A DNA stretch of 64,000 bases, taken from positions 1-64,000 of IMG/VR virus record IMGVR_UViG_3300026473_000011. One strand, 5' to 3'. Position numbers and translations under genes: made by a program. This document shows positions 10,177 to 53,237 of this stretch, one piece after another. Below the pieces are notes generated by a model. That model saw only the letters and a program-made list of their open reading frames with translations, was not told where the DNA came from and searched no databases. Every line of letters begins with the position of its first letter. Within the stretch, counting starts at the first letter, position 1. Origin of the DNA: a virus.

Positions 10177-10182
10177 ACGGAC

Positions 10183-10230
10183 AGAATCTAACATTGTTAA
10201 TGTTAAAAGTCAAACTCTATGTTAGATTCT
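10183..10230 (-). promoter_or_regulatory. Promoter and inverted-repeat operator of the AbiE-like pair
   Basis: A perfect 12-bp inverted repeat, AGAATCTAACAT (10183-10194) and ATGTTAGATTCT (10219-10230), flanks a third half-site ATGTTA (10200-10205); a fourth, TAACAT, lies at 10171-10176. On the minus strand TTGACT (10208-10213) and TAGATT (10185-10190) are spaced by 17 bp, a good -35/-10 pair. The arms overlap the -10 box and the start codons, as in autorepressed toxin-antitoxin operons. Confidence 0.65.
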
Positions 10231-10234
10231 GCTC

Positions 10235-11209
10235 TCAAAGGCTTGACGGCTCCGCCCAGACCAGCCGATACAGCCCCAGCCTGCGCTGCCGACTGACCAG
10301 TTGTTCATACGCATGCAATGGCCCCTCGTAGGCGGGATCGCCTCGGTTTGCCGCCTTCAGCTTGAACACGTCCATGGGCTTTTCGCTATCGAGTCCTGCC
10401 GCTCGCATGATGAATTCCGACGATTGAGCCCGATCACGGTGCGCCCACAGGGCTTCAAACACCCGGGTCTGGGCATCGGTCAAACGAATGGGGCCGTGCG
10501 GCCAGTCCTCCAGGTGCACCCAGGCGAAGTCTTCACTGAACGGCCCATGGACAGTCACGCTCGGGATGCCATCTTGCAGGGCATCGGCTTTTTCACCCCG
10601 GTCCGGATCGAGCAATCGCAATGCCAAACCGTGCAAGGCAAACCGGTCCTCGAGCTGCCACCAAGTAGCCATCCCCGCCAGAGGGTCCAATGGTTGTCGC
10701 ACCAACGGCCGTGGCGTGATGACCCAGCTTTGGCTGCGTGGCTCAGGTCCATGAAAAATCCGCAGCCCATGACGCTCGACCAGATCGATGCGGCGAGCCA
10801 GCACCACCGGCCGCTTCTTGTACCGACCAATGTCCCACACACCATCGACGATGTGGGCGGTGCTTGCTTGTGGCGAGATGTCCAGTGCGCCACGCAGCTT
10901 TCGGATCAGCCATTCATCGTCCAGGCGCCAATTGCGCTGACTGGCTGGATCCAGGGCAAACGGACCACAGTCCGGGCACTGCACCATGAGCCCATCGTCC
11001 GTCCTGAAGATCGGTCCACGGTAAAGGCCACAGAAAGCGCAAAGTGCATCCTGGCTGTTGACCACACCGGGTACAACGGCCTTCACCTGTTTGAGAACCT
11101 GTAGAGCCGCAATTTCTTCATCGTGCAGGCTGCTCTCAAAGGATGCACTGCCTCGCACGAACATCAAAGCGGCCAAGCTGATGGCTTGCTGATTGAGGGT
11201 CAACTCCAT
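10235..11209 (-). CDS. Unknown zinc-ribbon protein (324 aa)
   Basis: The family is not recognised. Residues around 55-85 carry ALCAFCGLYRGP and MVQCPDCGPF, two CxxC pairs that look like a zinc ribbon. The C-terminal half contains RLTDAQTRVFEALWAHRDRAQ, which could be a winged helix. It is the second gene of a two-gene leftward unit, seven bases after the 413-aa gene. The downstream AbiE-like promoter starts immediately after its stop, so the units are separate. It is probably a DNA- or RNA-binding phage or defence protein. Confidence 0.55.
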   Translation of the reverse strand: MELTLNQQAISLAALMFVRGSASFESSLHDEEIAALQVLKQVKAVVPGVVNSQDALCAFCGLYRGPIFRTDDGLMVQCPDCGPFALDPASQRNWRLDDEWLIRKLRGALDISPQASTAHIVDGVWDIGRYKKRPVVLARRIDLVERHGLRIFHGPEPRSQSWVITPRPLVRQPLDPLAGMATWWQLEDRFALHGLALRLLDPDRGEKADALQDGIPSVTVHGPFSEDFAWVHLEDWPHGPIRLTDAQTRVFEALWAHRDRAQSSEFIMRAAGLDSEKPMDVFKLKAANRGDPAYEGPLHAYEQLVSRQRRLGLYRLVWAEPSSL

Positions 11210-19138: not shown

Positions 19139-20668
19139 TTAAACGCTTGGACCATCTTCCATTCCCAGCCGCTTCATCCAGTTTGAAAGTGTCTGGTGAT
19201 TGGTGAATCCGAGTAGCTTCGCCGCCCCTGCTTTGCGCCATCCGGTTTTTTGAAGTGTCTGCTTGATGCAGTCGCGGGCAATTTCATCCAGGTAGTCTTG
19301 CAAAGTAAGCCCATCACTAAGAACTGGCCGATGGAATGAATTGGTTTCATTGGAAACAGGCAGTAATGCCGACTGAATATCCTGCCCCGTCAGTTCAGCT
19401 CCTTGGGACCATATCACCGCGCGCAGCAACGTGTGATAGAGCTCACGCACATTGCCAGGCCATGCATAGCTCTGAATCGCCCTCGCGGCTTCTTTGGTCA
19501 GGTGTTTTTGTTGAGCCTCCGGCTTACCGGCTGCATCTGCATTGATATTGCCCAGGAAGTGCTGAGCAAGTAGCATCACATCGCCTGTCCGGCTGCGAAG
19601 CGGTGGCAGCTGAAGAATGCCAACTGCAAGACGGTGAAATAGATCTTCCCTGAATCGACCCGCCGCCACATCAGCGGCCAAATTCCGGTGAGTTGCGGCC
19701 AAAATGCGCGTATTGATTGGGACAGGCTTTGATTGCCCCATGGGTGTAATCTCTTGAGACTGCAAGGCTCGCAGAAGGCGAACTTGTGTATCCAACGGCA
19801 GATCTCCTACCTCATCAAGGAAGAGCGTTCCACCAGATGCCTCCAGAAAACAACCTTTTCTGTCATTGGTGGCACCTGTGAACGCCCCCTTTTTATGACC
19901 AAACAACTCCGAGTTAGCCATCTCTGGAGATATGGCTCCGCAATTCACAGCGATAAAGGGACGATCTGCTCTTGAGCTTGCTGCATGAATCGCCTCTGCG
20001 AACAACTCTTTGCCCGTACCGGTTTCGCCAAGAATCAAGACTGGAACATCGTATGCAGCAATGCGTCGGGCCAGGCTAATCTGATCCGCGACAACCTGAC
20101 TTCGGTGAATAATTTTTTCGAACTCTGGCGCAAGCAACTGAACGGCGCCTGTGAGTCGGTTAACCCGATCGCCGGTGCGCTGCAGGTACTCGGGTAAGAA
20201 GTCGTTAGCAAGATCGAAGGGGAAATCGACCGTCTCGACACCTCTCTCTCTAGATGTCTGGATCAGCTTGGCTGGAAAGCGAGTTTTGGCCAGAATGATC
20301 CAAATGGCCGCCATGGCTGGCGTGCCAGGACTTAGGTGAAAAGTCAGTGAAACGTCATCATGCGGGAGACCAGCTTGACTGAGATTTGAGCTGACCTGGG
20401 TATAAATATCCGAGTAATCAATTGGGCTGACTAGATCGACGCTATATAGATCAATCGCCGAGGCTTGGTACCCAGTGATTGACTCGAGCCAGACGCAGAA
20501 ATTCCGGCTGCGTTCAAAGTCATAGTTGGACAACAGATAGACCCTGTCATACAGGGGTTGGCCGAGCAAGGCTGTGGCAATCGGCCCTAGATCCGCACCT
20601 CTCCTGCTCTCGGCGCACTCGTGATCAGCTGCACCGATCCACGCAACAAGCCAAGACTTTGAGTTCAT
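19139..20668 (-). CDS. Sigma-54 activator with RtcR/CARF-like sensor domain
   Basis: This 509-aa protein has a sensor domain over residues 1-175. There [20 protein letters not shown] and [11 protein letters not shown] match the place and shape of the RtcR N-domain (CARF superfamily). The AAA+ domain has Walker [10 protein letters not shown], the GAFTGA loop and Walker [14 protein letters not shown]. The C-terminal Fis-type HTH is [23 protein letters not shown] domains bind cyclic or linear nucleotide ligands, so a nucleic-acid-derived signal probably switches on the operon at 18990. The ORF runs divergently from paralogue B. It is not an rtcR orthologue: no rtcA or rtcB is nearby. Confidence 0.85.
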
Positions 20669-36200: not shown

Positions 36201-36237
36201 AGTACATCATATCATCATAATGATGATATGATGTACT
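36201..36237. promoter_or_regulatory. Perfect 18-bp inverted repeat at the WYL gene
   Basis: The arms AGTACATCATATCATCAT (36201-36218) and ATGATGATATGATGTACT (36220-36237) are perfect complements with one central base. They lie 39 bp upstream of the ATG at 36276. If translation instead began at 36228, the start codon would be inside the second arm. Palindromes of this kind are the binding sites of BrxR/CapW-type WYL repressors, so autorepression is likely. Confidence 0.8.
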
Positions 36238-36275
36238 GGAAATTAGCCTATCTGCAAGCAAAGGTTATTACTGGC

Positions 36276-37166
36276 ATGAAAGCCCAGCGCGTCGAGAACT
36301 TGAGTCACGCCCAGCGCGAGCGACTGGCCTACATCGACTTTCGCCTGTACTTCCTCGGTGAAATCGGTCGTCCCGACCTGATTGAGCGTTTCGGTGTGGC
36401 TCCGGCAGGTGCGACGCGCGACTTGGCGCTTTACCGTGAAATCGCGCCGCAGAACATCACCTTTGACGGTAGAAATAAGATCTATCGCATTGGGCAGGAG
36501 TTCGCCCCAGTGTTCGACCACGCACCTCAGCGCGTGCTGTCAGCGCTGGCTCTTGGCTTTGGCGATGGCGTGAACGGGACAATGCAGTCCTTGCTGCCGT
36601 GTGAATCACCCACTTCCTTGAGCAGCCCAAAAATGGATGCGCTGGCCCCAGTCTGCCGGGCGATCCACGCCAACCGGCCAATCGCCATTCGCTACCAATC
36701 GATGAGTAGTGGAAAGACCGAGCGGATCATTGTGCCATTTGCCCTCGTGGATACCGGTCTACGCTGGCACGTCCGCGCCTTTGACCGCAAGAGCGGAGAG
36801 TTTCGGGACTTTGTCGTCACCCGTATCGAAGCGCCGACGCTGCTCGACGAGGAGCCACGGGCCAACGAACGTCCGGATAACGATATCCAGTGGACGCGCA
36901 TCGTCGAGCTGGACTTCGTGCCGCATCCTCGCCTCGAGCGCCCTGAGATCATCCAGATGGACTACGGGATGACCGACGGCTCGATTCGGATGCGCGTGCG
37001 CGCAGCTGTAGCAGGCTACATGCTGTTACGCTGGAGTGTGGACTGCTCGTCCGACCACCATCTCAAGGAAGAACAGTATCGCCTATGGCTCAGCGATCCG
37101 CTTGCGCTTTACGGCGTAGAAAATGCAAAGCTCGCGCCAGGATATCGATCACCAATCAGTATTTGA
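36276..37166 (+). CDS. WYL-domain regulator (BrxR/CapW-like)
   Basis: The 296-aa product starts MKAQRVENLSHAQRERLA. The winged-helix region LGEIGRPDLIERFGVAPAGA is at the N-terminus. AIRYQSMSSGKTERIIVPF belongs to the WYL domain, and a C-terminal WCX-like extension follows. WYL proteins of this kind repress defence operons until a ligand binds. It precedes hsdM by only 38 bp, so it probably controls the RM operon and itself. A start at 36228 is possible but adds an odd N-terminus. Confidence 0.85.
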   Translation: MKAQRVENLSHAQRERLAYIDFRLYFLGEIGRPDLIERFGVAPAGATRDLALYREIAPQNITFDGRNKIYRIGQEFAPVFDHAPQRVLSALALGFGDGVNGTMQSLLPCESPTSLSSPKMDALAPVCRAIHANRPIAIRYQSMSSGKTERIIVPFALVDTGLRWHVRAFDRKSGEFRDFVVTRIEAPTLLDEEPRANERPDNDIQWTRIVELDFVPHPRLERPEIIQMDYGMTDGSIRMRVRAAVAGYMLLRWSVDCSSDHHLKEEQYRLWLSDPLALYGVENAKLAPGYRSPISI

Positions 37167-37204
37167 AGAAATAACAAAATACGAATCGAAAAGAAAATAA
37201 AACT

Positions 37205-38751
37205 ATGACTAGTATCCAACAACGCGCCGAACTACAACGCCGCATCTGGCAAATCGCCAACGATGTACGTGGGGCAGTCGACGGCTGGGATTTCAAACAA
37301 TATGTACTCGGCGCCTTGTTTTACCGCTTCATCAGTGAAAACTTCGCCAGCTACATCGAAGGCGGTGATGACAGCATCCAATACGCCGAGTTGACAGATA
37401 GCGTGATCACTCCAGATATCAAAGACGATGCGATTAAGACCAAGGGCTATTTCATCTACCCCAGCCAGTTGTTTGCCAACGTGGCTGCTAACGCTAACAC
37501 CAGCGTAAGCCTGAATACCGACCTTGCTACCATCTTTGCCGCCATTGAAGCGTCCGCCAACGGCTACCCCTCCGAACAAGACATCAAAGGCCTGTTTGCT
37601 GACTTTGACACCACCAGCAACCGCCTCGGCAACACTGTCAAAGACAAAAATGCCCGGCTCGCCGCAGTGCTCAAGGGCGTAGCCGAGTTGGACTTCGGCG
37701 ACTTCGACGCCAGCCATATCGACCTGTTCGGCGATGCCTATGAATTCCTCATTTCCAACTACGCTGCCAATGCCGGTAAATCGGGCGGCGAGTTTTTCAC
37801 GCCGCAACATGTGTCCAAGCTAATTGCCCAATTGGCGATGCACAAGCAAACCAGCGTCAACAAGATTTACGACCCCGCCTGCGGCTCCGGCTCGCTGCTA
37901 CTGCAAGCCAAAAAGCACTTTGACGCGCACATCATCGAGGAAGGCTTTTTTGGGCAAGAAATCAACCACACCACTTACAACCTGGCGCGGATGAACATGT
38001 TCTTGCACAACATCAACTACGACAAGTTCAACGTTCAGCTTGGCAACACCCTGATCGACCCGCATTTTGGTGATGACAAACCCTTCGATGCCATCGTCTC
38101 TAACCCGCCCTATTCGGTGAAGTGGATCGGTTCGGACGATCCCACTCTGATCAACGATGAGCGCTTTGCCCCGGCGGGCGTTCTGGCTCCCAAATCCAAA
38201 GCCGACTTTGCCTTTGTGCTGCACGCGCTGAGTTACCTCTCGAGCAAAGGTCGCGCCGCCATCGTCTGCTTTCCCGGTATTTTTTATCGCGGTGGGGCCG
38301 AGCAAAAGATCCGTCAGTATCTAGTGGATAACAACTACGTCGAATCCGTGATTTCGCTAGCGCCTAACCTGTTCTACGGCACAACCATCGCCGTGACCAT
38401 TCTGGTGCTATCCAAACACAAAACCGACACCACCACCCAGTTCATCGACGCCAGCGGCCTGTTCAAGAAAGAAACCAACAACAACGTTCTGCTGGACGCG
38501 CACATCGAACAAATCATGGCCGTGTTCGACAGCAAGGCGAATGTGGATCACGTTGCCCAATCTGTCCCTTTCGAGAAAGTGGCCGCCAACGATTACAACC
38601 TGTCGGTCAGTAGCTACGTCGAAGCCCGCGACAACCGCGAAGTCGTGGACATCAAGTCACTCAACGAGAAGATTGCAAACATCGTAGTGCGACAGACGGA
38701 GTTGCGAACGCAGATTGATGCCATCGTTGCGGAGTTGGAAGGAGAGGAAGC

Positions 38752-38755
<4 letters not shown>
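37205..38755 (+). CDS. hsdM: Type IC methyltransferase subunit HsdM
   Basis: This 516-aa adenine methylase subunit has [14 protein letters not shown] (motif I, 221-234) and SNPPYSV (motif IV, 299-305). The N-terminal HsdM_N region includes [18 protein letters not shown]. The length and layout match the EcoR124I HsdM (520 aa). It modifies the site set by HsdS and, with HsdR, restricts unmodified DNA. The stop overlaps the hsdS start (ATGA). Confidence 0.95.
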
Positions 38756-39454
<699 letters not shown>

Positions 39455-39462
<8 letters not shown>

Positions 39463-39973
39463 GATTACAACCACTATTGCTTCGGGTAGAAACAAGCAGC
39501 GAATGAGTGAGGGTATCTATCCGGTCTATGGTTCGACTGGCCTTATTGGTTACTCAGACAAACCCGCCTACTCAGGAGATGCTCTTCTTGTGGCTCGCGT
39601 AGGTGCGAACGCAGGACTGGTCAATGCCGTGAGTGGCGACTTCGACGTATCCGACAATACGCTCGTCGTCCGCCCAAGTTCAGACTGGGATGTTCGCTTT
39701 GCATTCCATCAGATGACTCATATGAACTTGAACCAATATGCAGTCGGCGGTGGCCAGCCTCTTGTAACGGGAGGGCTTTTGAAGAACTTGAAAGTACTCT
39801 TGCCTCCACTCAAAGAACAAGAGCGCATCGCTTCCATCCTCGACAAATTCGACGCGCTGGTGAACGACCTGTCCTCCGGCCTGCCTGCCGAAATCAAGGC
39901 GCGCCGCCAGCAATACGAACATTACCGCGATCGACTGTTGAACTTCCCAAAGTTGGAAGAGGTAGCTGTCTGA
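39455..39973 (+). CDS. hsdS: HsdS second half (TRD2), out of frame in this sequence
   Basis: The frame carries [22 protein letters not shown], the second TRD, and a C-terminal helix ending [14 protein letters not shown] like the first half's spacer. It lies +1 to the TRD1 frame. A TTG at 39455, with AAGGA nine bases upstream and overlapping the TRD1 stop, could allow separate expression by re-initiation. Otherwise the segment is joined only after tract slippage. I show the portion after the possible TTG. Confidence 0.8.
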
Positions 39974-39974
39974 G

Positions 39975-41183
39975 ATGAGCAAAACGCTAACCGAAATCGC
40001 TCAACAGCTGGGAGCCGCCGACAAAAAGATGCAGCTGATCTATGCCTTCAACGGCATGGGCAAGACGCGCCTGTCGCGGGAATTCAAGCAGCAGATTGCG
40101 ACCGAGGCCGACGGCGATGAAGACGCCGATCCAACCGCGCTGTCGCGCAACAGAATCCTTTATTACAACGCGCTCACGGAAGATTTGTTTTACTGGGATA
40201 ACGATCTGGCGGGCAATGCCGAGCACAAACTGAAAATCCAACCAAACTCGTTTACCGACTGGGTGCTGAAGGATCAGGGGCAAGACCAGAACATCATCAC
40301 AACCTTTCAGCGTTACACCAGCGATAAGCTCACACCGCGATTCAATGAAGAATATAAAGTCATAGGCAATGACGACAAGGAAAGCACCGTCAAAGCCTTC
40401 TCTGAAGTAACTTTCTCTCTTGAGCGTGGCGATGATGAACACTCCGGAAATTTGAAAATTTCCAAGGGCGAAGAAAGCAATTTCATCTGGAGCTTTTTCT
40501 ACACGCTGATTGAGCAGGTAATTGGCGTTCTCAATGTTGCCGAGCCGGAAGAACGCGAAACAGACCAATTCGATCAGCTGAAATATATTTTTGTTGATGA
40601 TCCGGTTAGCTCACTGGATGACAATCATTTGATTCAGTTGGCCGCGGATTTGGCGCAGCTGGTCAAATCAAACGAATCCAGTGTCAAATTCATTATCACG
40701 ACGCACAATCCGCTTTTCTTCAATGTGCTTTGCAATGAGTTTGGTAGCGATGAAAAAACCGAGCGCTACAACTGGAAGGCAAAGTGGTTCAGCAAGTCAC
40801 GGCTGGAGAAAAATGCGGACGGCAGTCTTCAATTGGTAGAGCAGCCAAACGATTCTCCGTTTGCGTATCACCTGCATCTGCTATCGCTGCTTGAAGAGGC
40901 AATAAAAAGCGGTCAGATCGAAAAATATCACTTCAATCTTCTCCGGAACATTCTCGAAAAGACGGCAACATTCCTCGGATACAAAAGGTGGGAACACCTT
41001 CTGCCGGAAACAGACGACGGCTTGCCCAACCCGTACGCAAAGCGAATTGTGAACTTCTCAAGCCATTCGAAACATGCTGCCGAAGAAGTGTCACCACTGA
41101 AACCTGAAGAGAGACAGGTTCTGGAAAAACTGGTCAAGCACGTTGTCGAGCAACATCGATTTTGGCAGGAAAAAACCACATGA
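39975..41183 (+). CDS. prrC: PrrC-type anticodon nuclease
   Basis: This 402-aa protein has an ABC-type ATPase: [15 protein letters not shown] (residues 23-37), the LSxGE-like ISKGEESNF, Walker [14 protein letters not shown] (204-216) and the H-loop IITTHNP. The C-terminal part has R324-x3-E328 and H364/H367, matching the Arg-Glu-His triad of E. coli PrrC (R320, E324, H356) in order and approximate spacing. PrrC lies between hsdS and hsdR, as here, and is held silent by the RM complex until phage anti-restriction releases it to cut tRNA. The stop overlaps hsdR. Confidence 0.85.
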
Positions 41184-44100
41184 TCGAATACAGCACCATC
41201 GCCGAATCGAAACACTTCATCGTCCTGGACAAATACACACAGGAATGGAAAGTCGCAGAAAGTTACCAGAGCGAAAGCGATCTAGAGCGGGAATTTGTTC
41301 AAGATCTGGTCAATCAGGGTTACGAGTATCTACCCGGCCTCAATACGCCTGAGTCCCTGCTTGCAAATGTACGCGTGCAGCTGCAAACGCTCAACAACAT
41401 GCAGTTTGCAGATGGCGAGTGGTTGCGTTTTGTCGAGACCTGGTTGGACAAGCCTAGTGATGGCATCGTTGAGAAAACCCGCAAGATTCACGACGACTAT
41501 ATCCACGACTTCGTCTTTGACGATGGGCGCATCCAGAACATCTACCTGCTGGATAAGAAGAACATCGCCCGCAACAAGGTGCAGGTGATCAAACAGTTCG
41601 AGCAGACTGGCAGTCACGCCAATCGCTATGACGTGACGATTCTGGTGAATGGCCTGCCGCTGGTTCAAGTGGAGCTAAAAAAGCGCGGCGTCGCGATTCG
41701 TGAGGCTTTTAACCAGGTGCACCGGTACAGCAAGGAGAGCTTTAACAGCGAGCATTCTTTGTTCAAGTATCTGCAGCTTTTTGTGATCTCCAACGGTACC
41801 GACAGCCGCTACTTCGCCAACACCACGGCACGCAACAAGAACAGCTTCGACTTCACCATGAACTGGGCGAAGGCGGACAACAGCCTGATCAAGGATCTGA
41901 AAGACTTTACCGCCACCTTCTTCCAGAAGCACACCCTGCTTAATGTGCTGCTGCATTACTCGGTGTTTGATGTCAGCAACACGCTGCTGGTGATGCGCCC
42001 GTACCAGATTGCCGCCACGGAGCGCATTCTGTGGAAAATCAACAGCGCGTATCAAGCCAAGAACTGGAGTCAGCTTGAGGGTGGTGGCTTCATCTGGCAC
42101 ACCACCGGTTCGGGCAAAACCCTGACCAGTTTCAAGGCGGCGCGTTTGACCACGGAGCTGGACTTCATTGACAAGGTGTTTTTCGTGGTGGACCGCAAGG
42201 ATCTGGATTACCAGACCATGAAGGAATACCAGCGCTTTTCACCCGACAGCGTGAATGGCTCGGACAGCACCTCCGGGTTGAAACGCAATCTGGAGAAGGA
42301 CGACAACAAAATCGTCGTCACCACCATCCAGAAGCTCAACAACCTGATGAAGAGCGAAACCGACTTGCCGATCTACGGCAAGCAGGTGGTGTTCATTTTT
42401 GATGAATGTCACCGCAGCCAGTTTGGTGAAGCCCAGAAGAACCTGAAGAAGAAGTTCAAGAAGTTCTATCAGTTTGGCTTTACCGGCACGCCGATCTTCC
42501 CGGAAAACGCCTTGGGCGCAGAAACCACTGCCAGCGTGTTTGGCCGCGAATTGCATTCTTATGTGATTACCGATGCGATCCGTGATGAAAAGGTGCTGAA
42601 GTTCAAGGTGGATTACAACGATGTGCGCCCGCAGTTCAAGGCCATTGAAACCGAGCAGGATGAGAAGAAACTCAGCGCGGCGGAAAACAAGCAGGCTTTG
42701 CTGCACCCGGACCGTATCCGCGAGATCACGCAGTACATCCTGAACAACTTCCGCCAGAAAACCCACCGTCTGCAAGCGGGCAATAAAGGCTTTAATGCCA
42801 TGTTCGCGGTCAGCAGCGTGGACGCAGCCAAGCTGTATTACGAGTCGTTCCGGGATCTGCAGAAAGGTAGCCAAACGACACAGCGGCCATTGCGAGTGGC
42901 CACCATCTTCTCGTTTGCGGCCAACGAGGAACAGGATGCGGTCGGCGACATTCAGGACGAAAGTTTTGATGTCTCGGCCATGAACAGTAGCGCCAAAGAG
43001 TTTTTGAGCGCAGCCATCGCGGACTACAACGCGCTGTTCAAAACCAACTTCAGCGTGGACAGCAACGGTTTCCAGAACTATTACCGCGATCTGGCCAAGC
43101 AGGTCAAAGCCAAGGAAATCGACCTGCTAATTGTGGTAGGCATGTTCCTGACCGGCTTTGACGCCCCCACGCTGAATACCTTGTTCGTGGACAAAAACTT
43201 GCGCTACCACGGGCTTATGCAGGCTTACTCGCGTACCAATCGCATTTTTGACGCCACCAAAACCTTTGGCAATATTGTCACCTTCCGCGATCTGGAGCAG
43301 GCGACAGTCGACGCCATTACCCTGTTCGGTGACACCAATACCAAGAATGTGGTGTTGGAGAAGAGTTACAAGGAGTACATGGAAGGCTTTACCGATGCGG
43401 CCACCGGCGAGGCGCGGCGGGGATTTTTAGAGGTGGTAAAGGAACTTGAGCAGCGTTTTCCTGACCCTGCAGCCATTGAAAAAGAGGCAGACAAAAAAGC
43501 CTTTGCGAAACTGTTTGGCGAATATTTGCGCGTTGAGAATGTGCTGCAAAACTACGATGAATTCGCCAGCCTGAAAGCCTTGCAAAGCATCGATTTGACC
43601 GATCCAGCGGCGGTGGAAGCGTTCAAGGCCAAACACTATTTGAGCGATGACGATCTGACATCACTGCAAGCTATAACGCTCCCTGCTGAGCGGAAAATTC
43701 AGGATTACCGCTCGACTTACAACGATGTGCGCGACTGGCAACGCCGTGAAAAAGCAGGGACTGAGAAGGATAAATCTGCTATCGATTGGGATGATGTGGT
43801 CTTTGAAGTGGACCTGCTTAAGTCACAGGAAATCAATCTGGACTACATCCTTGAACTGATCTTCGAACACAACAAAAAGATCAAGAGCAAGTCGGACCTG
43901 GTGGATGAAGTACGCCGGGTGATTCGTGCAAGCCTGGGTAATCGTGCCAAAGAGAGCTTGCTGGTCGACTTCATCAATCAGACTGATCTGGACCAGATTG
44001 GCGACAAGGCCAGCGTGATCGATGCCTTCTTCACCTTTGCGCAAGCGGAGCAGCAGCGTGAGGCGCAAGAGCTAATCAGTGCGGAGAACTTGAATGATGA

Positions 44101-44287
44101 GGCGGCACGTCGCTATATCGCTACTTCACTCAAGAGAGAGTTTGCCAGCGATAGCGGCACGGAACTGAACGCCGTGTTGCCCAAGATGAGCCCACTGAAC
44201 CCGCAATACCTTACGAAGAAGCAGAGCGTGTTCCAGAAAATCGCCGCTTTTGTGGAAAAGTTTAAAGGCGTGGGTGGGAATGTCTAA
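41180..44287 (+). CDS. hsdR: Type IC restriction subunit HsdR (EcoR124I-like)
   Basis: Starting at 41180 the protein is 1035 aa. D151, E165 and K167 fall exactly where the EcoR124I nuclease residues lie ([19 protein letters not shown]). K313 is in [10 protein letters not shown] (Walker A), and [10 protein letters not shown] is the helicase motif II. It translocates DNA and cuts unmodified targets far from the site. The ATG overlaps the prrC stop (ATGA). The EcoR124I HsdR is 1038 aa, so this is a full-length orthologue. Confidence 0.97.
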
Positions 44288-44308
44288 AAGGCTTCAAGGG
44301 GAATTTTT

Positions 44309-45250
44309 ATGACATTGAATTTAGCGCAAACCGTACTTAGCTACTTGAAGGCTCGGCCGGATGAGAAGTTGACTGCCCGGCAGATTGCCGAGTGGATTTT
44401 TGCCACGTTCCCAGAGGAATGCCAAGCGAAGAAACAGAGCAGCCAGTTCGTGACCACTGACGCTGAGCTGGTGCAACAGCTGGTCGCAGAAATTAGCTCG
44501 CAGCGTCCGCGTTTGCAAAGACGACACCCAGAGTTGAAGACGACCGAGGGTCGACCGCGCAAATACTATTACTCGGAAAAATCTGACATTGCCGAAGTCG
44601 CGGCGGCTGAGAGCGTAATTGCAGCCTCAACGGCTGAGAGTGGTGATGTCAAGCTCGGTGAACATTCCTTGTACCCCTTACTATCGTCATACATGTGGGA
44701 AGAGTTCGGTATCTATTCGAAGCGCATCGACGAAAAGCGATCGTCGAATAAAAGAGGGCCCAATGGCAACCGTTGGCTCTACCCGGACGTGGTCGGAATG
44801 GAAGATTTGGGCGCTGATTGGCATCAAGAGGTCCGAGATTGCGTGAATCAATATTCCGATAAGCGCACCAAGCTGTGGTCGTTCGAGGCCAAGCTGTTGA
44901 TTAACCGATCGAATGTTCGCGAATGCTTCTTTCAGGCTGTTTCCAACTCGTCATGGGCCAATTTCGGCTATCTTGTCGCAGCGGAAATTGAAGGCCAGGA
45001 CACGCTCAAAGAATTGCGAATGCTGTTCGCAGCGCATGGTATCGGCCTGATCAAATTAGATGCTGACAACCCGACTGAAAGTCAGGTGCTGATTCCAGCC
45101 CGTGAAAAGGACGAGATCGATTGGGACATGGCCAACCGCCTGGCAACAGAAAATCGGGATTTTCTGAAATACGTGACGCTGGTAAAACAGTTCTACCAGA
45201 CCGGTGAGGCGCGCCCGGCGGATTGGGACGTTCCGGAAATGAAGGACTGA
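44309..45250 (+). CDS. HrgA-like protein (COG2958)
   Basis: This 313-aa protein starts with a HARE-HTH-like region (LSYLKARPDEKLTARQIAEW; RRHPELKTTEGRPRKYYYS). A C-terminal domain with LWSFEAKLLINRSNVRECFFQ then NFGYLVAAEI follows, probably a nuclease-fold unit. COG2958/HrgA proteins are often found with restriction genes. AAGGGG precedes the ATG, and it lies 22 bp after hsdR in the same operon. The activity is not established. Confidence 0.7.
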   Translation: MTLNLAQTVLSYLKARPDEKLTARQIAEWIFATFPEECQAKKQSSQFVTTDAELVQQLVAEISSQRPRLQRRHPELKTTEGRPRKYYYSEKSDIAEVAAAESVIAASTAESGDVKLGEHSLYPLLSSYMWEEFGIYSKRIDEKRSSNKRGPNGNRWLYPDVVGMEDLGADWHQEVRDCVNQYSDKRTKLWSFEAKLLINRSNVRECFFQAVSNSSWANFGYLVAAEIEGQDTLKELRMLFAAHGIGLIKLDADNPTESQVLIPAREKDEIDWDMANRLATENRDFLKYVTLVKQFYQTGEARPADWDVPEMKD

Positions 45251-47075: not shown

Positions 47076-48497
47076 CTATGCGGCAACGACTTCAATCGGA
47101 AACGTTTTTCGTTTGTGCAACGTCGGGACAACTGTCTCCATGTCACCCCCCGTTTCTACGAAATCCAGACTGATGACCTCCAAACCGGGATGCCTGCTTC
47201 CTCGGATGGCATCTGCCTCAATTCGCGTCAGGATCAGGCCCTGGGTCTGGTAATACAGCGCAGCAGCCATGACCGCCAGGTTGTGCGAGAACGAGTTGTC
47301 ACAAGCGTGGCTCCAATAGTCGCCCTCAAGGAACAGACAGGCACCCTTGCACAACTGCACCACAGGGCAGCTTGGACATTCATGGCGCGTGCTGAAGTGG
47401 TAGGCCGTGTTGAGTGCAATGTCGTCAAACAGTTCAACATGCCCGATCCTGTGCTTCGTCGAGGCACTCATGTTCTGGCATGTCATGACATTGCCCTTCA
47501 TGTCCACCGCGATCGAATCATCCCGGTCCATACCGCATTTCTGGCCCAGGGAAGCCAGCGGTCTGGACTGGGCTTGCGCGCGCATGAATTCATCGACCTT
47601 GTCGCGCATCGTCCCCACAGCCATGCCCGAGCCGGTCACCAGCTCCCAGAACATCTGGTGGCGATAACGGTCGTGATCTGCCCCTTCCAGAGACAGCGAC
47701 ATGCCCCCCTGGTCATAAGGCAGCATCACCTCTTCGGTGGCCAGCACAATGGCCTGAACTGGCAGGTCAAGCTTTTCAGCGAAGAAATGCCGAACGGCCT
47801 TGAGGGACTGGTTGTGCCGGTGCAGCACTGTGTTGAAGCTCATCCGGTCCAGTGGCATTCGCCGGGACACCCAGCGCTTGATTTGGGCCAGCTTCTCGGG
47901 GTCTTCCAGCGGATCTGGCCCTCGGAAGGACTGCGCAGGGCCGTCATGTGACAGGCCGATCCCGATGTCCAGCGCCTCCACCCAGGCCAGCTTTTCATCA
48001 TCAAAGAGCGAGCCGTTGGTCACGATGGACAACTGCGCATTGGGGTAACGCACCTTGACGGCTTCACCCAGTGGCTTGAGCAGCTTCCAGTACACAAAGG
48101 GCTCGCCACCCCAGAACTCAATCTTTACATCTGCGCCCTGCCCGTCCGTGCCTCCGGCAAACCAGCCTTCAAGCTGCTGCATGAATGGAGCGACATCTTC
48201 AGGGTGACCGTCGATGTCATGGGGTTGGTGGGCCTGAGAGCAGTACTGACAGGTGTAGTTGCACTTGAGGCCCAGCTGCAGTTTCAGGTGCCGGATGGCT
48301 CTCGATTTCCCTGTAGGATTGCTCGGGTGATGTACATGCCAGAACGGCTGCCATTGCATGTCCTGCTGCTTGGGGAACGCCTGCGGGAGGGGCAAAGCCT
48401 CCCCACTGTTTTTCCACACCAAGCTGGAATAGTTGGGATCGTAGAGAGCTTGCCGTTCAAAGCCATTGCGCCCATTGAGAGTGAGCGTGAATGTCAT
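47076..48497 (-). CDS. Radical SAM/SPASM enzyme (phage-encoded)
   Basis: The 473-aa protein has CNYTCQYC (C79, C83, C86; CxxxCxxC), the radical SAM cluster loop, and FWGGEP. Its SPASM domain is complete: a Cys then GNVMTC, then CPSCPVVQLCKGAC (CX2CX5CX3C) and a final HAC. SPASM enzymes of this class modify ribosomally made peptides, often making thioethers or C-C bonds, or act as sulfatase maturases. It sits last in the tail-fibre operon, where the substrate is probably the Asn-Cys-rich tail. It overlaps the 69-aa gene. Confidence 0.88.
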   Translation of the reverse strand: MTFTLTLNGRNGFERQALYDPNYSSLVWKNSGEALPLPQAFPKQQDMQWQPFWHVHHPSNPTGKSRAIRHLKLQLGLKCNYTCQYCSQAHQPHDIDGHPEDVAPFMQQLEGWFAGGTDGQGADVKIEFWGGEPFVYWKLLKPLGEAVKVRYPNAQLSIVTNGSLFDDEKLAWVEALDIGIGLSHDGPAQSFRGPDPLEDPEKLAQIKRWVSRRMPLDRMSFNTVLHRHNQSLKAVRHFFAEKLDLPVQAIVLATEEVMLPYDQGGMSLSLEGADHDRYRHQMFWELVTGSGMAVGTMRDKVDEFMRAQAQSRPLASLGQKCGMDRDDSIAVDMKGNVMTCQNMSASTKHRIGHVELFDDIALNTAYHFSTRHECPSCPVVQLCKGACLFLEGDYWSHACDNSFSHNLAVMAAALYYQTQGLILTRIEADAIRGSRHPGLEVISLDFVETGGDMETVVPTLHKRKTFPIEVVAA

Positions 48498-48703
48498 GGC
48501 GTGGGCTCCTCAAACGCGATGGGATAGGCCTCACGGCAGACCTGGGACGGGTCAACGCCGGGCATCGTTGCCAGATTGAATGTGTGACGACCTGAGGCTT
48601 TCCCCTCAGAATTAGTGACCAATACGGTCATCACCAGGCTCGACGCATCGACCTGTACGACCTTGACCTCGTAGCCCGGTCGGGTTTGAAGATTGAGATT
48701 CAT
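48494..48703 (-). CDS. Small protein of the tail-maturation operon (69 aa)
   Basis: The product MNLNLQTRPGYEVKVV... has a mixed alpha/beta composition with one Cys (DPSQVCREAYP) and no recognised domain. It overlaps both neighbours by four bases (ATGA), which places it firmly in the operon. It could be a peptide-recognition adaptor for the radical SAM enzyme, but shows no PqqD-like motif. I leave the function open. Confidence 0.6.
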   Translation of the reverse strand: MNLNLQTRPGYEVKVVQVDASSLVMTVLVTNSEGKASGRHTFNLATMPGVDPSQVCREAYPIAFEEPTP

Positions 48704-49413
48704 TGATTTGACTCCATGGGATGGACTTGGGCGTGCGCCCGGATCTGTTCGGCTGACCAGGTTTGGTCACCGCCAGAGTCGTCACGGTGGGTGAAGCGGA
48801 CATTGGTAACGATGGCGACCTTGTCGCTTGCGGGATCGAACAGCGGAAACGTGGAATGCTCCAGATAACCCGGAAAAATGAACAACGCCCCTGGAAGGGG
48901 CGTCTGTGCGAAGAGCTTGTTTTCGTGCCGGAGCATCCAGTTGGCCTGCACTGGTCTGGGGTCGTGAAAACACAGGGCGCCAGGCATTCCGACTTCATTG
49001 CGTCCCTCTGTTGGACCTAGATGAACCCGGGGGTAATAAGTGGCCACCAATTGGTTGCCGACATGTCGGTGCGGGATGGCCCACTTTCCCAAACCGCGCT
49101 GGCGGTTCACGAAGGTGTTGTAGGTCATGGCCAGATCAGAAGGCTCTAGCGAGGGATACGCTTGCCGTACATAGCTGGCGACTCTGTCCTCGATGCAGGC
49201 CAGCAATCGCAGTAGTTCTGCACTGGGCTGCTCGCGCATCATCGACACCGTGTCAGCACGATGTGAAAGCTTCGCAGCGTTCTGGGTGTGGCGCTCGTAA
49301 AAACGCTCGGCTTGCTGCGTCAACGACTCGCGCACATCCTCAAGCTCATCAAGCTGATCGATCAGAACGTGGCTGGGCCACAGGCTCAGCAACCGGGGTG
49401 AAGGGGGTGTCAT
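48700..49413 (-). CDS. 2OG-Fe(II) oxygenase
   Basis: This 237-aa protein has IPHRHVGN (H115 and H117), GALFIFPGYLEHSTFP (H186) and a later KVAIVTNVRF. This is the arrangement of the 2OG-FeII_Oxy_5 group, where two iron ligands, a distal His and a basic residue hold iron and 2-oxoglutarate. Such enzymes hydroxylate residues or nucleic acids. It overlaps both neighbours (ATGA) and lies between the Asp/Asn hydroxylase-like gene and the 69-aa gene, so a post-translational role on the tail protein is plausible. Confidence 0.75.
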   Translation of the reverse strand: MTPPSPRLLSLWPSHVLIDQLDELEDVRESLTQQAERFYERHTQNAAKLSHRADTVSMMREQPSAELLRLLACIEDRVASYVRQAYPSLEPSDLAMTYNTFVNRQRGLGKWAIPHRHVGNQLVATYYPRVHLGPTEGRNEVGMPGALCFHDPRPVQANWMLRHENKLFAQTPLPGALFIFPGYLEHSTFPLFDPASDKVAIVTNVRFTHRDDSGGDQTWSAEQIRAHAQVHPMESNQ

Positions 49414-50204
49414 CGTGTCAGATCTCCATCAAGAATCATCTGTACTGGGTGTTTGCGGCCATAGAACCGGTTCGGTCGGTAGGTTCTGCTGGGGTGGTCA
49501 AACTCGATCCAAGGCCAGACACTGAAATGCATGCTGCAGCGGCTTCCCATCCAGGAGTCCCGATTGACCAGCGTGTGTTCGTAACCCGAGCAGTTCATCC
49601 ACAGGCATTCACCGAGGTTGAATTTCAGATCACCTACGCCATCGATGGACAAGGCCACACCGGACGATACCGCCAGACAGATGTCCAGCCGGATCTCCTC
49701 GAAGACCGAGGTATCCCGGTGTGGATGAACCAGGGCCTCATCGCGTGGGTTGGGCGGGACCAGAACCGTCAGACGCCCGGAGCCAACCGTGAGCGTGAAC
49801 TGATCAAGCATTGCTCCGATCTCCAGGTAACACCCGACAGGCGAGCGATGCACAAATGCCAGATGGTCTGCACCGCTAAAGCGGCCTGGGTTTTTACAAA
49901 GATAGGGGTCCATTGCGGTCACGGGCTGCCCCGTATGCGCCAGAGACAGATTGCGGAAATAACCTGGACTGGCCTCACTGACCTGAGTCTCCCAGACCTG
50001 CGAATCGAAGCGATCGAACGCCATAGCAAAAGCTTGCTCTAGCCGACTGGGAACCTCGACGCCAGGCACAGCTCGGATCGCCACGAGCTGGTCCAGCGCA
50101 GAGTCGGATACCGCCGCTACGGCTGATTCAAAGTCTGTCTCTTGCCGCAAGTACGCGGCCACCGTCATGTGATTGGGGATGCTGTCTGCATGTACCTCCC
50201 ACAT
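49410..50204 (-). CDS. Aspartyl/asparaginyl hydroxylase-like protein
   Basis: This product of about 264 aa has VHPHRDTSVFEE (H162-x-D164), NCSGYEHTLVN (H210) and SRCSMHFSV (R222), in the order of the Asp_Arg_Hydrox family (HxD, distal His, Arg). The family hydroxylates Asp or Asn side chains at the beta carbon. With Asn-rich tails encoded upstream, an Asn substrate is a natural guess. TGATG joins it to the gene before it. I start at the ATG at 50204. Confidence 0.72.
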   Translation of the reverse strand: MWEVHADSIPNHMTVAAYLRQETDFESAVAAVSDSALDQLVAIRAVPGVEVPSRLEQAFAMAFDRFDSQVWETQVSEASPGYFRNLSLAHTGQPVTAMDPYLCKNPGRFSGADHLAFVHRSPVGCYLEIGAMLDQFTLTVGSGRLTVLVPPNPRDEALVHPHRDTSVFEEIRLDICLAVSSGVALSIDGVGDLKFNLGECLWMNCSGYEHTLVNRDSWMGSRCSMHFSVWPWIEFDHPSRTYRPNRFYGRKHPVQMILDGDLTR

Positions 50205-51007
50205 CAGCTCACCTCTACCGAGGCACTGACCTTGTGGCTGAAATACTTGAATCCGACCTTGATCAGCCCACGGTCCTGAGCCGACAGGCCAAGGGCCATC
50301 CAATTGAAGTGCGCCTCGCCATCAACGAGGGCCACCTTGGTCTTGGGCAGAAATCCTGCTTCACATTCAAGGTAAAGGACGCCACTGCGTGTCTCAACCG
50401 CAGGCATGCCATTGGTCTCGTAGACCGGCTGGATCAGACGCACGCTACAGGGAACGGTTGCCCCAGCTGCACAAGTGACAGGCACATCCAGTTCGAGGGA
50501 TGGGAGAACTGCGTTGTAGAGCGAGACCCGCGAGCGCACTTCCACGAACTCGGCAAAGCCCTCTGGCGACATAGATTCGGGTGAATAGACAAGTACCGCC
50601 ACTTCCTCAATTGGGCTGTCCTCAAAGGGCACAAAAAACAGCACCGTACGCGGATGCAGCGGTCGCCCCAACAGGAACGGATTCTTGTGCAGGTTTGTCT
50701 GCGGGAACACCGAGTGCAAATGACCCAGATCGTCCCAGCCAAACCGAGCTTCAAGGGCCCAGTTGGTGTGGATGCCCCAGTGCTTGCCTAGGTCGGTGTG
50801 TGACTTGATGGCTTGCGGATCGAAAACAAAGGGGCGTGAGCCATATTCCTTTTCGTGGGTCTCCGGGTGAATTCGCCACGGTGTCACGGTGATCGTCTGA
50901 GCCTGCACATCGCGCTCGACACGGTAACTCACCGGAAAAGCGCCAAACGATTCGGCCGGCGACGGGATATTGAACAGCCGTCCGCCAACGGTGCTGCTGT
51001 CAGTCAT
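50204..51007 (-). CDS. Unknown 267-aa protein after the tail fibre
   Basis: The start MTDSSTVGGRLFNIPSP at 51007 has AAAGGA upstream; the frame stays open further upstream through the antisense of the repeats. The family is not recognised. It is beta-rich (VLFFVPFEDSPIEEVAVLVY; GVLYLECEAGFLPKTKVALV). It could be a tail-fibre chaperone, a second tip protein or the recognition partner for the maturation enzymes. It begins 12 bp after the tail-fibre stop. Confidence 0.6.
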   Translation of the reverse strand: MTDSSTVGGRLFNIPSPAESFGAFPVSYRVERDVQAQTITVTPWRIHPETHEKEYGSRPFVFDPQAIKSHTDLGKHWGIHTNWALEARFGWDDLGHLHSVFPQTNLHKNPFLLGRPLHPRTVLFFVPFEDSPIEEVAVLVYSPESMSPEGFAEFVEVRSRVSLYNAVLPSLELDVPVTCAAGATVPCSVRLIQPVYETNGMPAVETRSGVLYLECEAGFLPKTKVALVDGEAHFNWMALGLSAQDRGLIKVGFKYFSHKVSASVEVS

Positions 51008-51018
51008 GGTGATTCCTT

Positions 51019-52035
51019 TCAGCAGTCCGTGCTGCAGTTGCAATTGCAGTTGCAGTTGCAATTGGTGCGGCAATTGAAGGCTGTGTTGCCGCAATTGCAG
51101 TTGGTGTAGCTTCCACAGTTGCAGTTGCAATTGCAGGCTCGATACCAACGGTGGTACTCGCCGCCACCGATCTCGTCTTGAGCCAGGTAATAACCGTCGT
51201 AGTTCCACGCAATGGATGGGACGGCGTTGTAGGCGTAGGTCGTCCCTCCGACACCGTCGTACTGACCTGAATTCGCACAGTAGTTGAATCCCAGACCCCA
51301 GGTCCACCAGCTGGTATTGGAGGGCTTGAAATAAGCATTGCCTGCGCAATTTCCCGTGGGCAGGATGCCGTTGCAATTGCCTGTCAGGTCGTCGTAGTAC
51401 TGGTTGCTACGTCCCATCTCGCCAATGTCCTGGCCATCGTTCAGTCGATATCCAGTGTTACGTGCGTTGTCTGCAGCACCGGACTGCGATGAATAGATCA
51501 CAGCACCATTGGCCATGTACAGCGAGCCGGTCATCGTGTCGCCCGCCTTGGCCAGACGACTCGTGAGGTCAATGGGTACGGTGGCATTGCCAGTGGCATC
51601 CGGTGCGTTGCCATTGACTGAGCGCACGAAGGCCGTGGAGTCATAGCCATCGAGCTTGTCGGCGTCTGCCGCCTTGGCGGTGATTCCTAGGTATGCGGCA
51701 TTGTGGTTGTGGCCCAACGAGGCATAAGCCGCATCATGGTTGTGCCCGGCCAATGCAAAGCCGGTCGAGTCGATGCCATCGAGCAAATCTGCATTGGCCA
51801 CCTTGCCCACCGTGGCCGACAGGTCGATGACCATCTTCCAGGAGGCCGGGCTCACCACCGTGAGGATGTAGAGCTTTTGCTCATCGGTCCTGAAGCATGG
51901 CATGCCCAGCTGCAAGTTCACAGTCGGGAATGCCGTTCCACTGCAGAGTGACAAGGCAGTCTTGTCGTTATTCAGGATCTGCGAGAGCGAATCCGAGAGC
52001 GTCGTCGAGGATGGGATTTCGGTGTAGTTCTGCAT
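51019..52035 (-). CDS. Tail fibre protein with (Asn-Cys)-rich C-terminus
   Basis: This 338-aa protein has an N-terminal attachment part. A mid region follows with HNHDAAY-type HxH repeats (GHNHDAAYASLGHNHNAAY) like those of iron-binding long tail fibres, then a Gly/Asn-rich domain. The last 40 residues contain CNCNCNC, TNCNC and TNCNCNCNCNC, 13 Cys in all. Alternating Asn-Cys is unlike any globular domain I know. It begins the operon that ends with the radical SAM enzyme, and is probably the substrate. Metal binding by Cys is another possibility. Confidence 0.85.
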   Translation of the reverse strand: MQNYTEIPSSTTLSDSLSQILNNDKTALSLCSGTAFPTVNLQLGMPCFRTDEQKLYILTVVSPASWKMVIDLSATVGKVANADLLDGIDSTGFALAGHNHDAAYASLGHNHNAAYLGITAKAADADKLDGYDSTAFVRSVNGNAPDATGNATVPIDLTSRLAKAGDTMTGSLYMANGAVIYSSQSGAADNARNTGYRLNDGQDIGEMGRSNQYYDDLTGNCNGILPTGNCAGNAYFKPSNTSWWTWGLGFNYCANSGQYDGVGGTTYAYNAVPSIAWNYDGYYLAQDEIGGGEYHRWYRACNCNCNCGSYTNCNCGNTAFNCRTNCNCNCNCNCSTDC

Positions 52036-52046
52036 TTGGTTTCTCT

Positions 52047-53237
52047 TCAGTAACCCTGTGCGACCCAGGAGATGGCACCCGTCACGCGGGTGCCGGAGGT
52101 GTTTTCAAGAACAGCGGTGAAGCCAGTGATGGAGACCGTCCCCAGGATTCGTGGAACGGCGATGGTGGTGCCACCCTTGAAGGTCAGCGTGACTTCGGGT
52201 GCCACCCGGAACTGCCGGGCAAAGAGCACCACCACGCCACTGGCGGCCGTGACCACCTGCGCCGTACCCCGGTCAAAGACATCGGGCACGTCCACCGTTA
52301 CGCGCAGGCCATCGATGTAGCCCCGGTCTGCATTACTGGAGGTCAGGATTGCCCTGAACAGGGCGCGCTGGTAGGTGTAGTCGCCCTGGATGAAATCCCG
52401 GAAGTTGGTGTACCCGGGCGGATGGCCGGACTCCAGGATGTCCATGAAGTCCTGCTCCGTGATTTCCGTATTGGCCACGATCATGTCGCTGATGACGCCA
52501 TTGGCCCGGCGCCGGTATTGCTCGGCAAGGTTCAGCGCTTCACTGAGCTTCAGAGTCTGGGCCCGCCGCAGTGCCTCGGCGATGGCAAAGCCTTCGCTGA
52601 TGGCCAGGCGGTAGGCAACCGTGCGCCCCAGCGCCTCGGCAAAAGCGAACGACTCCGAGACCCGTTTGACCTGCGAGCGGGCCAACGCATCACTCATGGC
52701 AAAGCTCTCGCCCTGCGGCTTGGTCAAGGCCTTGGCTGGCTTTTCTGCAAAGTTCAGGTTTTCTGCAACCCGCAGGATGTAGGCAATGAGGTCCGTGTAG
52801 GTCTCGGCCAGCGCCAGCGATTCAAACTTGCGGAGCACCAGTTGCCTCGCCAGCTCTTCGGCCACCTGAAACACCTCGAACACAGCCTTGGTGCCAGAGC
52901 GGGCGTACTTCTCGGCGAAGGTCAGCGACTCCACAAAGCGCAGCACGAAGGCGATCAGGTCGGTGTAGGTCTCCACAAAATTCAGCGTCTCGAACTTGCT
53001 GAGGGTCACCGCACGGCTGGCTTTTTCCGAGAAACTCAGGCCCTCGGAGCTGCTCTTGATGCCCAACTTCTGGACCAACTCGACAAAACTCAGGTCCGTG
53101 GCCACGCTCAGGGCGTAGACCGCTGGATAGGCACTTGACCAGTTCTTGCCTGCCGTGGCGCTGCTCCAGGCGAACTTTCCCGAGGTCCAGTTGTAGTTCG
53201 CCCCCGGGGCGCTGGAGACGTTGACAGTCTCGGCCAT
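52047..53237 (-). CDS. Tail protein with 10 or so repeats
   Basis: This 396-aa protein has about ten related 17-35 residue helical units (SEGLSFSEKASR; VESLTFAEKYAR; SESFAFAEALGR; SEGFAIAEALRR). A beta-rich C-terminal domain follows (APEVTLTFKGGTTIAVPRI). The repeats have Glu-x-aromatic/Leu-x-Phe/Leu patterns, probably forming a coiled rod. It lies between the 148-aa tail gene and the tail fibre. It is probably a structural or side tail protein. Confidence 0.7.
   Translation of the reverse strand: MAETVNVSSAPGANYNWTSGKFAWSSATAGKNWSSAYPAVYALSVATDLSFVELVQKLGIKSSSEGLSFSEKASRAVTLSKFETLNFVETYTDLIAFVLRFVESLTFAEKYARSGTKAVFEVFQVAEELARQLVLRKFESLALAETYTDLIAYILRVAENLNFAEKPAKALTKPQGESFAMSDALARSQVKRVSESFAFAEALGRTVAYRLAISEGFAIAEALRRAQTLKLSEALNLAEQYRRRANGVISDMIVANTEITEQDFMDILESGHPPGYTNFRDFIQGDYTYQRALFRAILTSSNADRGYIDGLRVTVDVPDVFDRGTAQVVTAASGVVVLFARQFRVAPEVTLTFKGGTTIAVPRILGTVSITGFTAVLENTSGTRVTGAISWVAQGY

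What the first reader, a model, noticed from the sequence alone, without database searches (positions are those of the whole stretch)
47076..52035. Phage tail fibre with an (Asn-Cys)n tail, followed by a radical SAM enzyme and two oxygenases
The tail fibre at 51019-52035 ends in about 40 residues of CNCNCNC, TNCNC and TNCNCNCNCNC type with 13 Cys. The next five genes overlap or nearly abut: a 267-aa unknown, an Asp/Asn-hydroxylase-like protein (H162-x-D164, H210, R222), a second 2OG-Fe(II) oxygenase (HRH, H186), a 69-aa protein and a radical SAM/SPASM enzyme with canonical CxxxCxxC and CX2CX5CX3C. SPASM enzymes form thioether or other bonds on Cys-rich peptides, and some join Cys to Asn alpha carbon. 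I infer a phage-borne system that cross-links or hydroxylates the tail tip. I know of no described phage tail system with this set, but cannot search.
Basis: partly seen in the sequence, partly recalled or inferred. Interest (0 to 1): 0.92.

Follow-up and report, generated by a model that had tools for sequence, protein, structure and literature searches.

The report
Radical-SAM enzyme paired with cysteine-tailed phage fibres
Many phages and prophages carry tail fibres that end in a run of alternating cysteine and asparagine, and next to such a fibre there is almost always a radical SAM enzyme of the type that cross-links cysteine-rich peptides, which suggests that phages chemically remodel the tips of their own tail fibres, something I could not find described.

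Summary
It is also general. Three independent searches (by the tail's DNA, by the enzyme, by neighbouring genes) show near-obligate pairing of a C-terminal (X-Cys)n tail (X = Asn 69%, Asp 12%, Ala 10%) with one rSAM family (phrog_1802). Of 113 non-redundant enzyme loci that were not truncated, 103 have the tail. No record of chance CNCNCNC matches has the enzyme (0/50). Loci found by their neighbours carry both (55), neither (3), never one alone. The smallest module is tail plus rSAM. A ~270-aa protein and 2OG oxygenases are frequent extras, and oxygenase presence follows a terminal Cys-Cys. In eight loci a self-processing Hint domain directly follows the tail. Best explanation: RiPP-like maturation of a virion protein, with the rSAM forming thioethers in the tail. 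Enzyme action on the tail is strongly inferred; the chemistry is not shown. Closest structure is CteB; the open AuxI site and absence of an extra Cys argue against sulfatase-type and epimerase chemistry. Two cultured Achromobacter phages, JWF and 2-1, carry it.

The parts
51019..52035 (-). tail fibre, 338 aa: trimeric-fibre-like body with HxH repeats (GHNHDAAYASLGHNHNAAYLG) and NC tail
   Evidence: (N-terminus homologous to fibres of Achromobacter phages JWF and 2-1)
51022..51135 (-). C-terminal NC tail, residues C301-C338, proposed substrate of the rSAM
   Evidence: the same kind of tail in 120 distinct sequences
50204..51007 (-). 267-aa protein (unk267 family); AF2 model with beta-rich N-part and Ig-like C-terminal domain; proposed fibre chaperone or substrate-presenting protein
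   Evidence: family present between tail and rSAM in 113 of 159 loci; AF2 pLDDT 86; PDB matches only weak (E > 0.001; Ig-fold chains and intimin), viral matches to uncharacterised phage proteins
49410..50204 (-). 264-aa AspH-like 2OG oxygenase candidate (H162-x-D164, H210, R222)
   Evidence: invariant ligands; no Pfam/PHROG family; in 13 of 159 loci
48700..49413 (-). 237-aa 2OG-Fe(II) oxygenase (phrog_81 / PF13759-like)
   Evidence: family in 93 of 159 loci
48494..48703 (-). 69-aa small protein, unknown
   Evidence: relatives in 17 of 159 loci
47076..48497 (-). 473-aa radical SAM/SPASM enzyme, proposed tail-modifying enzyme

Best explanation
This is a RiPP-like maturation module for a virion structural protein. 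The body of the tail fibre carries a C-terminal 'core' of alternating X-Cys (X mostly Asn). Before or during virion assembly, a dedicated phage-encoded radical SAM/SPASM enzyme abstracts hydrogen from the X residues and couples each to a cysteine thiol held at an auxiliary Fe-S cluster, giving a row of thioether cross-links that stiffen and protect the fibre tip. A ~270-aa partner with an Ig-like domain probably presents or chaperones the tail; 2OG oxygenases, present in many but not all phages, probably hydroxylate it further; in some phages a Hint domain fused after the tail cuts itself off to free the finished tip. Shown by sequence: the tail, the genes, their pairing, order and covariation. 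Inferred: that the enzyme acts on the tail (likely, about 0.85), that the bond is a thioether (about 0.6), that the oxygenases act on the tail (about 0.5), and the role of the finished tip (open).
For: (1) Search by tail DNA alone: loci with a real ORF ending in (NC)n nearly always hold the rSAM within a few kb downstream on the same strand; 50 records where the same DNA pattern fell in wrong frames, short ORFs or internal sites hold none. (2) Search by enzyme: in the pooled set, 103 of 113 non-redundant non-truncated rSAM loci have an NC tail or NC tail + Hint. (3) Search by neighbours: with at least 4.5 kb downstream, 55 loci have both, 3 neither, 0 only one; two of the 'neither' loci keep the same fibre N-terminus but end in an ordinary SHNH...INLAVQYVDVIIATKN C-terminus. 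(4) Minimal operon tail+rSAM with 4-bp spacing (L033, L041, L055, L199, L233). (5) Enzyme: all 3+7 canonical cysteines invariant, no other invariant Cys; best fold match of its AF2 model is CteB, 'Thioether Bond Formation in the Biosynthesis of Sactipeptides' (E 7e-12); anSME's extra AuxI ligand Cys is missing, as in CteB, which leaves an open AuxI site like the one that binds substrate Cys in CteB (described in PMC8172795). Family models with significant partial matches include thioether-forming maturases (PapB, SCIFF maturase, QHNDH maturase). Cys-Asn thioethers are known (thurincin H Cys13-Asn19, RumC2 Cys22-Asn35; PMC8172795). (6) Oxygenase presence tracks a terminal Cys-Cys: 38/41 with CC against 21/73 without, Fisher p 1e-11; on the rSAM tree, 7 branches change both traits, all in the same direction, null mean 2.0, maximum 7 in 500. 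(7) Hint domain starts right after the NC tail in eight loci.
Against: No mass spectrum or structure exists; bond type, partner atoms and site are unknown. Ala, Val and Gly at some X positions mean Asn is not strictly needed. The AF2 model shows three N-terminal strands but no helices there, so no canonical RRE leader-binding domain. Structural similarity to CteB is at superfamily level (TM about 0.5), and anSME and TigE are nearly as close. The oxygenase/CC correlation is partly phylogenetic. Ten non-redundant rSAM relatives lack the tail, mostly divergent members (34-46% identity) in Variovorax, Sulfuritalea, Sulfuricella and similar genomes.
Confidence: 0.6

Rival explanations
1. The rSAM epimerises alternate residues of the tail (for example D-Asn/L-Cys), as PoyD does in polytheonamide, giving an alternating D,L strand or helix; the mass would not change.
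For: The strict X-Cys alternation suits an alternating epimerase; polytheonamide-type clusters also pair rSAM with 2OG hydroxylases (from general knowledge); the epimerase EpeE is a distant fold match.
Against: Epimerases of this kind use a dedicated Cys as hydrogen donor (general knowledge); the only invariant cysteines are the ten cluster ligands. EpeE ranks well below CteB.
Confidence: 0.12
2. The tail is a metal-thiolate needle: in the fibre trimer, CxC layers from three chains coordinate iron or another metal, as HxH layers coordinate iron in T4 gp37, and the rSAM serves a different protein or step.
For: Every second residue on a beta strand faces inward; the same fibre carries HxH motifs; Cys is the invariant element while X varies.
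Against: Does not explain why an rSAM of one family is needed wherever the tail occurs, including two-gene operons; metal binding needs no such enzyme.
Confidence: 0.1
3. The rSAM makes another modification of the tail: C-C or C-N cross-links, Cys-derived carbonyls (formylglycine-like), or an unknown chemistry.
For: anSME and TigE are also close matches; JWF's enzyme is annotated as an anaerobic sulfatase-maturating enzyme; SPASM enzymes have diverse chemistries.
Against: The AuxI ligand specific to anSME is missing, no CxPSR motif or sulfatase gene was seen, and TIGR03942 scores 38 bits against a cut-off of 349.
Confidence: 0.13
4. The link is passive: rSAM and oxygenases are cargo of this tail gene region and act on host metabolites or other virion proteins.
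For: 2OG oxygenases, an Asp/Arg-hydroxylase and a desaturase also sit beside related fibres without NC tails (L377).
Against: The rSAM, unlike the oxygenases, disappears exactly when the NC tail does and is tied to the tail over more than 100 divergent loci.
Confidence: 0.05

Closest known systems
SPASM radical SAM thioether synthases of sactipeptides/ranthipeptides (CteB, PapB, RumMC2, thurincin H ThnB)
   Same: CxxxCxxC core, SPASM domain with 7 Cys and a three-Cys AuxI, fold of CteB, Cys-rich substrate encoded next door; Cys-Asn thioethers are known products
   Different: Substrate is the C-terminus of a full-length phage tail fibre, not a small peptide; no canonical N-terminal RRE; no leader protease or exporter gene seen in the module; own family (phrog_1802)
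QHNDH maturase QhpD (TIGR03906)
   Same: rSAM/SPASM enzyme that installs thioethers inside a folded working protein; partial profile match
   Different: 52 bits against a cut-off of 453; acts on a periplasmic enzyme subunit, not a virion part; Cys-Asp/Glu partners
Polytheonamide-type rSAM epimerase + 2OG hydroxylase systems
   Same: rSAM with 2OG oxygenase acting on an alternating pattern (from general knowledge)
   Different: no extra conserved Cys donor here; virion protein substrate
Phage T4 gp37 tip with HxH iron sites
   Same: alternating metal-ligand motifs in a trimeric tail fibre
   Different: His, no maturation enzyme; not at the extreme C-terminus
Hint (hedgehog/intein) autoprocessing domains, PF05203/PF01079
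   Same: CFPAGT start and Hint profile match at the end of eight NC-tailed fibres; JWF and 2-1 above the PF05203 cut-off
   Different: located as a cap directly after the NC tail of a phage fibre; cleavage not shown

Membership tests
Sactipeptide/ranthipeptide SPASM thioether synthase system | rSAM CxxxCxxC and complete 7-Cys SPASM motif | tested here: met
   invariant in 23 diverse members; TIGR04085 34.1 bits against cut-off 27
Sactipeptide/ranthipeptide SPASM thioether synthase system | AuxI cluster with only three protein Cys (open site), as in CteB | tested here: met
   CGMDxxD... in place of anSME CGMNGTctC; CteB CGSGHE...; cluster assignment from known anSME/CteB ligands
Sactipeptide/ranthipeptide SPASM thioether synthase system | Cys-rich substrate encoded adjacent to the enzyme | tested here: met
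Sactipeptide/ranthipeptide SPASM thioether synthase system | N-terminal RRE winged-helix domain binding a leader | tested here: not met
   AF2 model: three strands at residues 3-28, no following helices before the barrel; a degenerate RRE is not excluded
Sactipeptide/ranthipeptide SPASM thioether synthase system | thioether bonds in the product | not testable with these tools
   needs mass spectrometry or NMR
rSAM peptide epimerase (PoyD/EpeE) | additional conserved Cys as hydrogen donor | tested here: not met
   only the ten cluster Cys are invariant
Anaerobic sulfatase maturase (anSME) | match to TIGR03942 and eighth SPASM Cys | tested here: not met
   37.7 bits against 349.45; ligand missing
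2OG-Fe(II) oxygenase (48700-49413) | metal-binding His residues and family profile | tested here: met
   phrog_81 E 3e-12, PF13759 25.2 bits against cut-off 27; H115 and H186 invariant
Aspartyl/asparaginyl hydroxylase PF05118 (49410-50204) | profile match | tested here: not met
   no Pfam, NCBIfam or PHROG match; only the H-x-D...H...R pattern is conserved
Hint autoprocessing domain (JWF-type fibres) | Hint profile beginning with the nucleophile Cys | tested here: met
   PF05203 47.5 and 46.6 bits against cut-off 32.1 in JWF and 2-1; others below cut-off; start positions

The most novel reading that the evidence does not exclude
A previously undescribed, widespread class of virion post-translational modification: phages of Betaproteobacteria, Alphaproteobacteria and others enzymatically cross-link (and in part hydroxylate) an alternating X-Cys tip of their tail fibres with a dedicated radical SAM enzyme, producing a covalently locked needle or receptor-binding tip with a repeat chemistry not seen in any known RiPP.
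Probability: 0.5. Interest if true: 0.95.

Novelty: new variant of a known kind. Interest (0 to 1): 0.87.

Why it matters
If the enzyme acts on the tail, a phage structural protein is matured by radical chemistry known so far from natural-product peptides and a few enzymes. That would open three testable questions: how a tail-fibre tip gains stability or receptor affinity from cross-linked cysteines, how an rSAM enzyme recognises a folded, probably trimeric fibre rather than a leader peptide, and whether the modular NC tail can be moved to other proteins as a cross-linking tag. It also gives a function to phrog_1802, now annotated only as 'radical SAM domain-containing protein', and links phage 2OG oxygenases, filed as auxiliary metabolic genes (phrog_81), to virion maturation.

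Tried and rejected
Microsatellite artefact: rejected, mixed synonymous codons in the tail and conservation across diverged phages. Unrelated neighbours by chance: rejected by the 0/50 control and the neighbour-based search. RRE at the rSAM N-terminus: no canonical one seen. Fold search of the 267-aa protein: no PDB match below E 0.001, so only 'Ig-like C-terminal domain' and relatives of unknown function. Plasmids: no convincing relative, two partial hits at 24-26% identity. Campylobacter phage rSAMs are distant and stand among unrelated genes. Xylophilus phage Lumi, a relative of JWF, has neither NC tail nor a matching rSAM. A Burkholderia jumbo phage (S13) lists three rSAM and two 2OG proteins, but no relative of it came up. 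Literature: nine of the ten searches bore on this module or its enzyme class (only traced PDB entry 8VPO) and none found a description of the pairing; preprints and most subscription papers are not in that library.
Full report
Observation. Searches confirm the genes and coordinates. The fibre (52035-51019, - strand, 338 aa) ends in a 41-residue stretch with 13 Cys and 12 Asn; the first 297 residues have 5 Cys. Alternation exceeds composition-matched shuffles (8 CxC steps, mean 3.7, 47 of 20,000 as high), and synonymous codons are mixed, so the protein sequence and not the DNA repeat appears to be under selection. The following genes abut or overlap by 1-4 bp and end with the rSAM enzyme (473 aa). 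Profiles: phrog_1802 (E 5e-53) and SPASM TIGR04085 above cut-off for the rSAM; phrog_81 and PF13759 (just below cut-off) for the 237-aa oxygenase; nothing for the 267-aa, 264-aa and 69-aa proteins. The window lies in a virus record of 73,410 bases. Closest bacterial relatives of its tail region are prophage loci of an uncultured Burkholderiales bacterium and of Limnohabitans sp. Jir72, 85-86% identical over 5.9 kb, so the host is probably a Limnohabitans-like Burkholderiales bacterium (inference).

Cultured relatives. Among 50,697 phage records only Achromobacter phages JWF and 2-1 have a full-length relative of the enzyme (37% identity). Their fibre has a homologous N-terminus and ends ...NCNCDCNCNCS|CFPAGTMVLMADGT..., an NC tail run directly into a Hint domain (PF05203 above cut-off). 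Their genes between fibre and enzyme differ: a 240-aa protein and no 2OG gene.

Is the pairing real? Three searches with different starting points. (a) By tail DNA: the pattern for CNCNCNC hit 119 stretches of viral contigs. 54 passed the filter for a real ORF with CNCNCNC near its C-terminus, and two of those (L106, L120) look spurious; most have the rSAM nearby. Searching whole records of the remainder left only contig-end truncations (L053, L063, L091, L101, L105, L115) and L103, a 50-aa ORF fragment at a contig start, without it. Fifty records in which the pattern lay out of frame, in short ORFs or inside unrelated proteins had no rSAM. (b) By enzyme: an alignment of 23 diverse members found 80 viral and 80 genomic loci. 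Pooled with the earlier loci, 204 loci fall into 122 groups at roughly 90% identity; 103 groups have an NC tail or an NC tail + Hint upstream on the same strand, 9 are truncated, 10 lack it. Several of those ten are divergent enzymes (34-46% identity) from Variovorax, Sulfuritalea, Sulfuricella and similar genomes; two loci counted as lacking it (L025, L233) do show NC runs that my filter missed. (c) By neighbours: loci found through the fibre body or the protein upstream of it, with at least 4.5 kb downstream, split 55 with both tail and rSAM, 3 with neither, 0 with one. In L377 and L412 the same fibre N-terminus ends in a conventional C-terminus and the rSAM is absent. Loci within (a)-(c) are partly redundant with each other.

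Anatomy across loci. The usual order is tail, ~270-aa protein, 2OG oxygenase, rSAM (113, 93 and 159 of 159 loci for the last three; AspH-like 13, 69-aa protein 17, a second oxygenase type matching PF13640 in 15). The smallest version is tail and rSAM with 4-bp spacing (L033, L041, L199, L233). In 120 distinct tails the residue between cysteines is Asn 334, Asp 58, Ala 48, others 41. Tails ending with adjacent cysteines go with an oxygenase: 38 of 41, against 21 of 73 without (Fisher p 1e-11). On an rSAM tree of 96 loci the two traits change together on 7 branches, always in the same direction; shuffles averaged 2.0 with a maximum of 7 in 500. Relatedness is thus only partly controlled. In eight loci a Hint domain begins right after the tail.

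Mechanism. The enzyme's only invariant cysteines are the three rSAM and seven SPASM ligands. anSME has a further AuxI ligand that is absent here and in CteB; in CteB the free site binds a substrate Cys (PMC8172795, read). The AF2 model (pLDDT 83) is closest to CteB, then anSME and TigE. Peptide epimerases need an extra Cys donor (general knowledge), which is lacking. Thioether formation in the tail is therefore the best-supported chemistry, with Cys-Asn bonds having precedent in thurincin H and ruminococcin C (PMC8172795). The fibre body would play the part of a leader and the Hint domain, where present, that of a self-removing follower (inference). The 267-aa protein models as beta-rich with an Ig-like C-terminal domain; a chaperone or presenter role is a guess.

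What is shown and what is not. Shown: the sequences, their conservation, pairing, order and covariation. Inferred: that the rSAM modifies the tail, the thioether, hydroxylation by 2OG oxygenases, Hint cleavage, and any benefit to the phage. The library of papers gave no description of this pairing, but preprints and most subscription papers are outside it.

Novelty. The enzyme class and its probable chemistry are known; the substrate (the tip of a virion fibre), the alternating tail, the Hint cap and the oxygenase partners are, as far as I could search, not described. I file it as a new variant of a known kind, with a fair chance that it is a separate class of virion modification.

Noticed in passing
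window 36228-45250, + strand: WYL regulator, HsdM (PF02384), an AAA_13 protein and HsdR: a type I restriction-modification locus lying next to the phage lysis and tail genes.
   Followed up: partly
window 19139-20668, - strand: Sigma-54 activator with a weak RtcR match (RNA-repair regulator, below cut-off); suggests bacterial flanking genes or cargo in the record.
   Followed up: no
L377 and L412, downstream of a fibre with the same N-terminus but no NC tail: In L377 an Asp/Arg beta-hydroxylase (PF05118) and a fatty-acid desaturase family protein (PF00487): fibre-linked oxygenases exist without rSAM.
   Followed up: partly
L011, L017, L084, L094, L026: A second arrangement: short NC-tailed proteins beside two to five more distant rSAM genes in a row.
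   Followed up: partly
L251 (Sulfuritalea MAG), rSAM at 8863-10251: A relative of the rSAM stands after proteins that look like ABC-transporter and HlyD-type secretion genes (by eye), with no NC tail; perhaps a non-phage branch with another substrate.
   Followed up: no
L166:7490-8110: phrog_274 is labelled 'DNA endonuclease V', but this matching protein also matches PF13640, 2OG-Fe(II) oxygenase; the PHROG label looks doubtful.
   Followed up: no
window 52047-53237, - strand: Upstream structural protein with internal repeats of the type LxFxExxxD/LxLAExY and a possible weak H-type lectin end (E 0.047).
   Followed up: no
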